This document shows, one piece after another, positions 12,901-15,900 of a stretch of DNA of 64,000 bases. How positions within the stretch are numbered: the stretch's first letter is position 1; every line of letters begins with the position of its first letter. A program made the position numbers and the translations under genes. The stretch comes from Astropecten irregularis (lineage: Eukaryota; Echinodermata; Asteroidea; Paxillosida; Astropectinidae), in the NCBI GenBank assembly GCA_963971285.1, contig OZ020265.1, forward strand, positions 5,806,270 to 5,870,269, read 5' to 3'. The notes beneath the pieces were generated by a model. It worked only from the letters and a program-made list of their open reading frames with translations. It ran no database searches and was not told the DNA's origin.

Positions 12901-15900
12901 ACAAGAAGCATTTTTAAGTCATTGAGTGATCCCCCATGTACCGTTCCCAGGTTGCAGCATTGTTGCGTGTATCATTGAAACGATCCCTGGGGTGTGGCGG
13001 TGTGTGCGTGGTTTCATGGCTTCTGACTGCCAAACGAACAAAGATACTTGACTATTGGGGTCACCACCAACATAGGGCTGGATGGCTCAGTTGGTAGAGC
13101 GCCTGTACGGTATTCAGGAGGTCGCCGGTTCGAATCCCGCTCCAGTCAATTTTTCTTTGTTCACTTTTCAATGACTTAAAATAACTCAGTCAGTTTCCCT
13201 TGTGGTTATTTCACGTATATGATAATTAAAAAGCCGTATCCTCTTTGAGTGATCCCCCATGTACCGTTCCCAGGTTGCAGCATTGTTGCGTGTATCATTG
13301 AAACGATCCCTGGGGTGTGGCGGTGTGTGCGTGGTTTCATGGCTTCTGACTGCCAAACGAACAAAGATAGTTGACTATTGGGGTCACCACCAACATAGGG
13401 CTGGATGGCTCAGTTGGTAGAGCGCCTGTACGGTATTCAGGAGGTCGCCGGTTCGAATCCCGCTCCAGTCAATTTTTCTTTGTTCACTTTTCAATGACTT
13501 AAAATAACTCAGTCAGTTTCCCTTGTGGTTATTTCACGTATATAATAATTAAAAAGCCGTATAAAAAACATACATCCTCTTTGAGTGATCCCCCATGTAC
13601 CGTTCCCAGGTTGCAGCATTGTTGCGTGTATCATTGAAACGATCCCTGGGGTGTGGCGGTGTGTGCGTGGTTTCATGGCTTCTGACTGCCAAACGAACAA
13701 AGATAGTTGACTATTGGGGTCACCACCAACATAGGGCTGGATGGCTCAGTTGGTAGAGCGCCTGTACGGTATTCAGGAGGTCGCCGGTTCGAATCCCGCT
13801 CCAGTCAATTTTTCTTTGTTCACTTTTCAATGACTTAAAATAACTCAGTCAGTTTCCCTTGTGGCTATTTCACGATAGAAGAAGCATTTTTGCCGCTATA
13901 CATGTACATGCTTTGCATTTATAAATATGTACAAAAATCTGTCATAATTTCAGGGAATTAAAAACGGCCAGGCAGTATTTCATTTCACCCAGTAAATATT
14001 TCCCGTTTCTGTAAAATATTTTGGCTATTTTTTTTTCCAACAGGAATGTTCAGTCAGTCAAGTCAAGGATGAAATTTGGTAAAGCAGAATTGTTCAGTAA
14101 AGTGGTGTATGTTATATTGGCGTTCCATACCCTATACAATCATACATGGGATCATTTATAGTTTTATACTCACCAATAGTTGGATCATATTCATCAACGA
14201 AACTGTTGAGAAAGAAAAGAGCACACAATAACAATAAGTTATAACAACCAAGGATGGGTCCTTGGGAGATATTCATATCATAGGGTCGTGCACAAAACTT
14301 AACTGAAGCTATTTCTAAACATCCTCCAAACCAAAAATAATCAGTCTAAAATCTGAAGCAGGAAACTAAAATTAGTATTAAGATGACGATTTTTTTATCC
14401 CATCGTATCGGTAGGGCCTACTCTGACCATTGTGACTAGAGGCACCAAGGCAATGGCCAGGGGCACCAAGGCAATGACAAGGGGCACCAAGGCAATGTCC
14501 AGGGGCACCAAGGCAATGACCAGGGGCATCAAGGCAATGACAAGGGGCACCAAGGCAATGACAATGGGCACCAAGGCAATGACCAGGGCCACCAAGGCAA
14601 TGACCAGAGGCATCAAGGCAATGACCAGAGGCATCAAGGCAATGACCAGAGGCATCAAGGCAATGACTAGAGGCACCAAGGCAATGGCCAGGGGCACCAA
14701 GGCAATGACAAGGGGCACCAAGGCAATGTCCAGGGGCACCAAGGCAATGACCAGGGGCATCAAGGCAATGACAAGGGGCACCAAGGCAATGACAATGGGC
14801 ACCAAGGCAATGACCAGGGCCACCAAGGCAATGACCAGAGGCATCAAGGCAATGACCAGAGGCATCAAGGCAATGACAAGGGGCATCAAGGCAATGACCA
14901 GGGGCACCAAGGCAATGACCACGGCACCAAGGCAATGACCAGCGGGCTCCAAGGCAATGTCAAGGGGCATCAAGGCAATGACCAGGGGCACCAAGGCAAT
15001 GACCAGAGGCACCAAGGCAATGACCAGTGACACCACGGCAGTGACCAGGGGCACCAAGGCAATGACCAGTGAACACCAAGGCAATGACCAGGGGCACCGA
15101 GACACTGTACATAGAAACTGTACTCACTGATTTTGAATGAGTTGAATCGTAAGAGCACTCTTACCAACGCCACCAGCTGTTAAACAATAACAAAAACAAC
15201 AAAACGAAGACATCAATTTATAAATTAATCGAACGGAAGAAAATAATGTACTCACTGGTTCTGTATTAGTTGAATGGTAAGAGCACTTTTCCCTACGCCA
15301 CCAGCTGTTTAAATGAAAACAGTTATGTACATCAAGTAAATATGAGCTAAGAATAGTAACATTTACCTTGGAGAAAAAGTCCAAGGGTCGATTTCACAAA
15401 GCACTACAGTAAGACTGATCTTAAAGGTAATATCATACATGTACTTTGGTTTTTATCAAAGAAATACAGATTTATTGGAAAACATCAAGACAGATACAAT
15501 TCAGTCATCTGTGAAAATTTCAGTCCCATACGGTGCCCACTTTTTGAGAAACCAGTTAAAAACAGCCACGATATTTCTAAAGTATTTTCTCTTTTATTTT
15601 TTCACTAGACCTGTGGCATTCATGTACATAGGAAAACCAAAATTGTATGCAATATTGTGTCAAAAGTCATCAATTGAGGCACCATTTTAATTGTGCAAGG
15701 AAAACAAAATCACTGGACAGCCGGACTAGTGCAGTAACACACTTTACTAGACCATGGAGGAAGGAAAAGACTGACACTGAAATCACTAGACTCGGTCCAG
15801 GGCCTAGTGGATATTTCGAGCCCTTCATGGGAGACTGTAGAGTACATGGGAAAGTTTTGACTGGTCTGCACCCGTGTGGGTTTCAGCAGCATGCAGCTCC

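What the first reader, a model, noticed from the sequence alone, without database searches (positions are those of the whole stretch)
15128..15304. Ras P-loop exon duplicated in tandem, identical protein, obligatorily one-of-two
Two 49-nt exons, each with its own acceptor and GTGAGT donor, lie 79 bp apart. Both encode Ala11-Asn26 with no amino-acid difference. Eight of 16 complete codons differ at the third base, and the flanking introns are largely unalignable. This looks like an old duplication with both copies under strong purifying selection. Including both gives a stop five codons into the second copy; skipping both shifts frame. Mutually exclusive exons normally exist to give different peptides. 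Here the peptide is the same, so the alternative may serve RNA-level control, such as tissue-specific expression, poison-exon down-regulation through NMD, or translation or splicing kinetics. The 79-bp separation is short enough for steric interference between splice sites to enforce exclusivity (inference). I know of no described case in a Ras gene.
Basis: partly seen in the sequence, partly recalled or inferred. Interest (0 to 1): 0.93.

Follow-up and report, generated by a model that had tools for sequence, protein, structure and literature searches.

The report
Twin Ras exons encoding identical peptide
A starfish-like animal carries two neighbouring copies of the exon for the catalytic loop of its Ras protein; by the sequence only one copy at a time gives a working message and both spell exactly the same amino acids, so the choice cannot change the protein and either matters at the RNA level or is a frozen accident.

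Summary
On the minus strand, the one canonical Ras gene found in this 476-Mb echinoderm assembly has two 49-nt copies (15304-15256, 15176-15128) of the exon for Ala11-Asn26, each with intact AG/GTGAGT sites, 79 nt apart. Eight of 16 codons differ, all silently; flanks do not align. Either copy alone gives the same 188-aa Ras; both, neither, or a retained spacer gives an early stop. Had one copy been unconstrained, amino-acid changes would be expected (0 of 2000 simulations had none).

New evidence on mechanism: the spacer is shorter than all 98 introns estimated from three gene families of this genome (shortest about 127 nt). Its plausible branch-point adenines lie 31-43 nt from the first copy's donor, below the ~50-nt steric limit invoked for alpha-tropomyosin and OGDH. 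Joining 2A to 2B is probably blocked.

Identity of the peptide needs no special function: KRas has the same 16 residues. Why both copies persist is open; a neutral-redundancy model keeps both splice-competent in 2-6% of runs, mildly favouring a role. RNA pairing is weak at best and codon bias absent. No RNA data or related genomes were available. New variant of mutually exclusive exons.

The parts
19092..19122 (-). Ras coding exon 1 (ATG to first base of codon 11: [11 protein letters not shown])
   Evidence: translation and GTAAGT donor
15256..15304 (-). Ras exon 2A, first copy of the P-loop exon (Ala11-Asn26 + CA of His27), 49 nt
   Evidence: AG acceptor, GTGAGT donor, translation
15177..15255 (-). 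79-nt spacer intron between 2A and 2B; yUnAy adenines at 31, 35 and 43 nt from the 2A donor (and one at 76, 4 nt from the acceptor), no adenine at 44-67, no AG between position 4 and the acceptor, T-rich tract
   Evidence: shortest of 98 other estimated introns about 127 nt
15128..15176 (-). Ras exon 2B, second copy of the P-loop exon, same peptide, 8 silent differences
14174..14202 (-). Ras exon 3 (completes His27; FVDEYDPTI)
11496..11580 (-). Ras exon 4 ([28 protein letters not shown]..)
9627..9769 (-). Ras exon 5
8670..8788 (-). Ras exon 6
8368..8409 (-). Ras exon 7
6861..6929 (-). Ras last coding exon, ends CVLL and stop

Best explanation
This is a genuine pair of tandem-duplicated, mutually exclusive exons in the only canonical Ras gene found in this genome. 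Exon 1 can join 2A or 2B, and the chosen copy joins exon 3. Joining 2A to 2B is blocked because the 79-nt spacer places the branch point for 2B at most 43 nt from the 2A donor, too close for both sites to be assembled together; frame shift and NMD back this up. The protein is the same either way because the P-loop and first helix of Ras do not tolerate change, so missense drift is removed in either copy. Steps shown: anatomy, frame consequences, silent-only divergence, spacer length, positions of candidate branch points. Steps inferred: that both copies are spliced, that the steric block works, and that both are kept because choosing between them matters for RNA output (timing, tissue or amount) rather than by luck.
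For: Intact splice sites and identical peptide in both copies; 0 of 2000 drift simulations without amino-acid change; spacer of 79 nt against a shortest of about 127 nt among 98 introns estimated from all 195 listed chaperonin, proteasome and myosin matches of the same genome; candidate branch-point adenines at 31, 35 and 43 nt from the donor, none at 44-67, against the <50-nt steric criterion of PMC5740500 (section 7 read) and the 25-41 nt branch points mapped in OGDH (PMC7969005, passages); the redundancy model keeps both copies' splice dinucleotides in only 2.2-5.7% of runs (six settings of 40,000); one match each for exon 1 and exon 3 in the window, so both copies must share them; among ten Ras-superfamily stretches of this genome, nine show their P-loop exon once at E < 1 (in C14 from codon 14 on) and the tenth (C21) shows only residues 17-36.
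Against: No transcript evidence of any kind. The branch point is predicted by consensus, not mapped, and its distance to the acceptor is ordinary here (3 of the 25 other introns examined have their first upstream adenine at 37-39 nt); only the short spacer makes it special. Intron lengths are estimates from matches; one chaperonin match holds 93 extra nt in an open frame, which could be a protein insert or a short intron, still longer than 79. The dS estimate (1.57) rests on 12 silent sites, and 8 differing codons is compatible with saturation (expected 9.3-9.8; P(8 or fewer) 0.24-0.33), so age is unknown. Picking one striking case out of a whole genome weakens the 2-6% argument.
Confidence: 0.68

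Rival explanations
1. Neutral redundancy: the duplication was harmless at birth because the copies cannot be spliced together. Neither can drift, because Ras P-loop missense changes are dominant and harmful, so both linger with no regulatory role; one will eventually lose a splice site.
For: Peptide 11-26 is identical in KRas, so constraint alone explains identity; codon usage of the two copies is indistinguishable (geometric means 0.54 and 0.53); the redundancy model still allows 2-6% survival. That P-loop missense in Ras is dominant is recalled knowledge.
Against: Survival to this divergence with both sites intact is unlikely under the model, and more so if the true age exceeds what 8 differences imply.
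Confidence: 0.38
2. Regulated RNA-level switch: the copies carry different splicing signals and are chosen by tissue, stage or amount, possibly with skip-both as an NMD outlet that sets Ras dose.
For: The acceptors differ: 2B is more T-rich (0.71 against 0.48 T in -25..-5). Skip-both puts a stop 296 nt upstream of the last coding junction. Precedents: N-cadherin exon pairs whose proteins rescue equally but whose expression differs (PMC2655722, abstract and Discussion read), and the HRAS poison exon (PMC10334793, passages).
Against: No RNA data; no regional fold or codon signal and at best a weak pairing signal; double inclusion, the usual NMD outlet, is disfavoured by the short spacer.
Confidence: 0.4
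3. Competing RNA pairing between 2A and 2B enforces the choice.
For: 2A and 2B can pair through a 13-bp core; duplex energy -28.1 kcal/mol. Only 61 of 2000 random synonymous pairs with AT-rich third bases pair as well.
Against: With even codon choice 160 of 2000 random pairs do as well (125 of 2000 with 2A fixed, 297 of 2000 with 2B fixed), 2B pairs better with itself (-33.4), and with the real spacer 390 of 1000 fold as well; regional fold z = -0.55, 55 of 200 shuffles as good.
Confidence: 0.05
4. One copy is never spliced and is a dying or dead exon.
For: No transcript shows both in use.
Against: Zero amino-acid changes, no indel, intact splice sites in both; 0 of 2000 drift runs match.
Confidence: 0.08
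5. Assembly or haplotype artefact.
For: None found.
Against: 8 silent differences, unalignable flanks, one full match among the listed rows of the assembly search.
Confidence: 0.02

Closest known systems
OGDH exons 4a/4b and alpha-tropomyosin exons (branch-point-proximity mutually exclusive exons)
   Same: Adjacent duplicated exons, short intervening intron, branch point under about 50 nt from the upstream donor, uridine-rich stretch before the acceptor (PMC7969005, passages; tropomyosin seen there only as a cited title and otherwise recalled)
   Different: Those pairs encode different peptides; here the branch point is predicted only
Arthropod N-cadherin mutually exclusive exons
   Same: The choice was not found to change protein function in vivo; proposed to control where and when the gene is expressed (PMC2655722, abstract and Discussion)
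   Different: N-cadherin copies differ in sequence (paper: over 50% divergence tolerated); here the peptide is identical
U2AF1 exons Ab/3
   Same: Tandem duplicates; both-in and both-out transcripts carry stops and go to NMD (PMC5224494, passages)
   Different: Seven amino-acid differences between the copies
KRAS exons 4A/4B and the HRAS poison exon (IDX, exon 5)
   Same: Alternative exons in Ras genes; the HRAS exon lowers Ras output through NMD (PMC9882654 passages; PMC10334793 passages)
   Different: Other part of the gene; 4A/4B change the membrane tail; that IDX is not a duplicate of a coding exon is recalled

Membership tests
Mutually exclusive exons (splicing sense) | Adjacent homologous exons of the same length and phase, each with its own splice sites | tested here: met
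Mutually exclusive exons (splicing sense) | Joint inclusion or joint skipping is non-productive | tested here: met
   49 nt each; stops at codons 32 and 51
Mutually exclusive exons (splicing sense) | Transcripts contain one and only one copy | not testable with these tools
   no RNA data
Branch-point-proximity (steric) class of mutually exclusive exons | Branch point less than about 50 nt from the upstream donor | tested here: inconclusive
   predicted adenines at 31, 35 and 43 nt; not mapped
Branch-point-proximity (steric) class of mutually exclusive exons | Intervening intron shorter than introns normally spliced in that genome | tested here: met
   79 nt against a shortest of about 127 nt in 98 estimated introns of three families
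Tandem duplicated exon substitution events (protein-diversifying) | The two copies give different peptides | tested here: not met
   0 of 16 residues differ; definition from PMC9741552, passages
Canonical Ras (H/K/N type) | Ras GTPase domain, P-loop, switch II, lysine-rich tail with CAAX end | tested here: met
   PF00071 190.3 bits against cut-off 21.6; best solved match KRas 2B, 315 bits; ends CVLL
Dscam-type docking-site/selector exon clusters | Competing base pairing between a docking site and selectors | tested here: inconclusive
   local fold z = -0.55 and 2A-2B pairing weak; long introns not scanned

The most novel reading that the evidence does not exclude
A 'synonymous' exon switch: mutually exclusive exons kept by selection although they encode the same peptide, so that splice choice acts only on RNA (amount, timing, tissue, skip-both NMD) in an animal's only canonical Ras gene.
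Probability: 0.3. Interest if true: 0.85.

Novelty: new variant of a known kind. Interest (0 to 1): 0.6.

Why it matters
Mutually exclusive exons are normally explained by the different peptides they give. A pair that gives the same peptide separates splicing control from protein diversity. It makes directly testable whether exon duplicates can be kept for RNA-level reasons alone, or are simply frozen in because the encoded segment (here the Ras P-loop, where missense changes are dominant; recalled) cannot drift. My literature searches listed no described identical-peptide pair; they cover only the open-licence library, and listings were read beyond the title and abstract only for the papers named here.

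Tried and rejected
RNA structure as the enforcer: weak at best (8% or 3% of random synonymous pairs do as well, depending on codon choice; regional fold not unusual). Translation kinetics: codon adaptiveness at the eight differing codons does not differ (1346 reference codons). Alternative first exon feeding 2B: one MTEYKL match in the window. Copy imported from a paralog: ten Ras-superfamily stretches (Rap1, RRas, MRas, Ral, Rheb, Rit-like, Rho-like and others, named by eye) show no second P-loop exon at E < 1, and none of the 18 paralog introns whose ends I resolved lies at codon 11; the boundary before the C14 and C21 P-loop exons was not resolved. Dating the duplication: silent sites are compatible with saturation. 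Comparison with other starfish: I had no animal genome collection to search, and no relatives of this genome are held. One search used exon coordinates off by one base and is superseded. One search estimated intron lengths from 167 of the 195 rows (96 introns); redid it with all 195 rows (98 of 150 neighbour pairs usable), same shortest value. One search also listed three neighbour pairs with overlapping query ranges; in each the first match reads through stops, so I take them as run-on matches, not exon duplicates (not checked further).

Paper searches for identical-peptide exon pairs or Ras exon duplication in starfish listed none in the open-licence PMC library; most subscription papers are not held. 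PMC6071210, PMC9013439 and PMC9477723 were opened by passages only and gave no such case.

Full report
What is there. The window lies at G000:C30:5806270-5870269 in a 475.7-Mb assembly of 168 contigs. The mitochondrial contig reads with code 9 (AAA as Asn, ATA as Ile; COX1, then frames I recognise as ND4L and COX2) and has tRNA Ala/Leu/Asn/Gln in front of COX1. From recalled gene orders this fits a starfish; the species was not identified. On the minus strand the window carries a complete Ras coding region of eight exon positions, the second present twice. It codes for 188 aa ending CVLL, hits PF00071 at 190 bits and KRas 2B best among solved structures. A whole-genome protein search scored 97 matches; exon matches of 81-98% identity over 27 residues or more all lie in this gene, while long matches elsewhere reach at most 69% and short ones at most 80%, so this is the only canonical Ras found.

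The two copies. 2A (15304-15256) and 2B (15176-15128) are 49 nt each, phase 1 in and phase 2 out, with AG and GTGAGT. Eight of 16 codons differ, all silently. Nei-Gojobori silent sites 12.2, pS 0.66, dS about 1.57; no nonsilent change. If one copy had been free to drift until 8 third bases differed, 0 of 2000 runs kept the peptide (two starting sequences, 1000 each). The observed count is also compatible with full saturation (expected 9.3-9.8 differing codons, P(8 or fewer) 0.24-0.33), so the duplication may be very old. Flanking introns show no alignment beyond splice signals.

Consequences of each splice choice. 1-2A-3 and 1-2B-3 give the same 188-aa protein. 1-2A-2B-3 stops at codon 32, 451 nt upstream of the last coding junction; 1-3 stops at codon 51, 296 nt upstream. 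A retained spacer reads CAG TGA straight after Asn26. Every product other than one-of-two is therefore an expected NMD target (general rule, recalled).

Why one-of-two. The spacer is 79 nt. From all 195 listed matches of chaperonin, proteasome and myosin families in the same genome, 98 introns could be estimated: shortest about 127 nt, none under 120, median about 550 (from; a first version on 167 rows gave 96 and the same shortest). Short introns could hide inside single matches: two matches are longer than their query range by more than 40 nt, by 159 and 93 nt, the latter in an open frame; both exceed 79. Within the spacer, consensus yUnAy adenines lie 31, 35 and 43 nt from the 2A donor; another match at position 76 is 4 nt from the acceptor. 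There is no adenine at 44-67, and no AG between position 4 and the acceptor. Compared with 25 other introns (seven of Ras, 18 reconstructed in paralogs), a first adenine 37 nt from the acceptor is not odd: three others have 37-39. The short spacer is what puts it close to the donor. A human survey uses <50 nt between donor and branch point as the steric criterion (57 of 629 clusters; PMC5740500, section 7 read), and OGDH branch points at 25-41 nt enforce exclusivity there (PMC7969005, passages). The 2B acceptor is more T-rich than the 2A acceptor (0.71 against 0.48 T in -25..-5), so a weaker upstream and a stronger downstream acceptor may compete for exon 1 (inference).

What gave little or nothing. 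The 2A-2B exon duplex (-28.1 kcal/mol, 13-bp core) is matched by 160 of 2000 random synonymous pairs, and by 61 of 2000 with AT-rich third bases; with 2A fixed 125 and with 2B fixed 297 of 2000; with the real spacer 390 of 1000 fold as well; 2B pairs better with itself, -33.4. The region folds no better than shuffles (z = -0.55, 55 of 200 as good). Codon adaptiveness is equal (0.54 and 0.53).

Why both persist. Residues 11-26 are identical in KRas (alignment), so identity of the copies needs nothing more than purifying selection on both. In a model where missense is never fixed but loss of GT or AG in one copy is neutral, both copies are still intact at 8 silent differences in 2.2-5.7% of runs (40,000 per setting, six settings). 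This leans towards active retention, but the case was picked because it is striking, so neutral redundancy stays a live rival. Precedents for splice choice without known protein consequence exist: N-cadherin exon pairs in arthropods (PMC2655722, abstract and Discussion). For Ras, output control by a poison exon is known in HRAS (PMC10334793, passages), and mutually exclusive exons with different tails in KRAS (PMC9882654, passages and section 7). Nine searches of the open library listed no identical-peptide pair (listings, with selected papers opened by passage).

Controls. In ten Ras-superfamily stretches of this genome (14 fetched loci) nine show their P-loop exon once at E < 1 (in C14 from codon 14 on); in the tenth (C21) only residues 17-36 were found. 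Among the listed rows of the assembly search the 15000-15400 stretch has one full match; the other listed rows match its minisatellite part.

Verdict. Observation confirmed; steric exclusivity well supported by anatomy; use of both copies likely; RNA-level function unproven. New variant of mutually exclusive exons, interest 0.6.

Noticed in passing
15177-15195 (3' end of spacer) and C1:19697966-19697982 (L042/L043, Rap1-like intron after codon 42): The acceptor of exon 2B and the acceptor of a Rap1 exon share their last 19 nt (TTTTGTTATTGTTTAACAG). The last 17 nt occur at only these two places in the genome (reversed control pattern also 2). In a positional null of 26 introns, 2 of 2000 sets reach 17 and none 19. 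Found by eye, so post hoc: chance, a shared splicing signal or conversion.
   Followed up: partly
14433-15098: A 21-bp minisatellite (about 32 copies) fills most of the 925-nt intron right after exon 2B; related arrays lie on many contigs (467 matches, a lower bound).
   Followed up: no
12922-13874: A tandem 323-bp repeat (2.9 copies) with three tRNA-Thr (GGT) genes on the + strand sits inside the Ras intron between exons 3 and 4.
   Followed up: no
6861-6929: The Ras tail ends CVLL, which by recalled CAAX rules predicts geranylgeranylation rather than farnesylation; switch II reads DSAGQ (Ser58, exon 4).
   Followed up: no
G000 C123, C131, C152: Uninterrupted full-length chaperonin, COX1 and proteasome-family frames on small contigs look like microbial contigs in the assembly; C25 carries a COX1 match with 7 TGA (probably a nuclear mitochondrial copy).
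   Followed up: no
L051 (C8:35470001-35480000): A divergent Ras-like gene on the minus strand in which the P-loop exon match lies downstream of matches to later parts of the protein, suggesting tandem copies or rearrangement.
   Followed up: no
50665-51047 and 27397-28059: Long hexamer (GAGCCT, about 64 copies) and 12-bp (GCTCCAGCTGTG, about 56 copies) arrays open in several frames.
   Followed up: no
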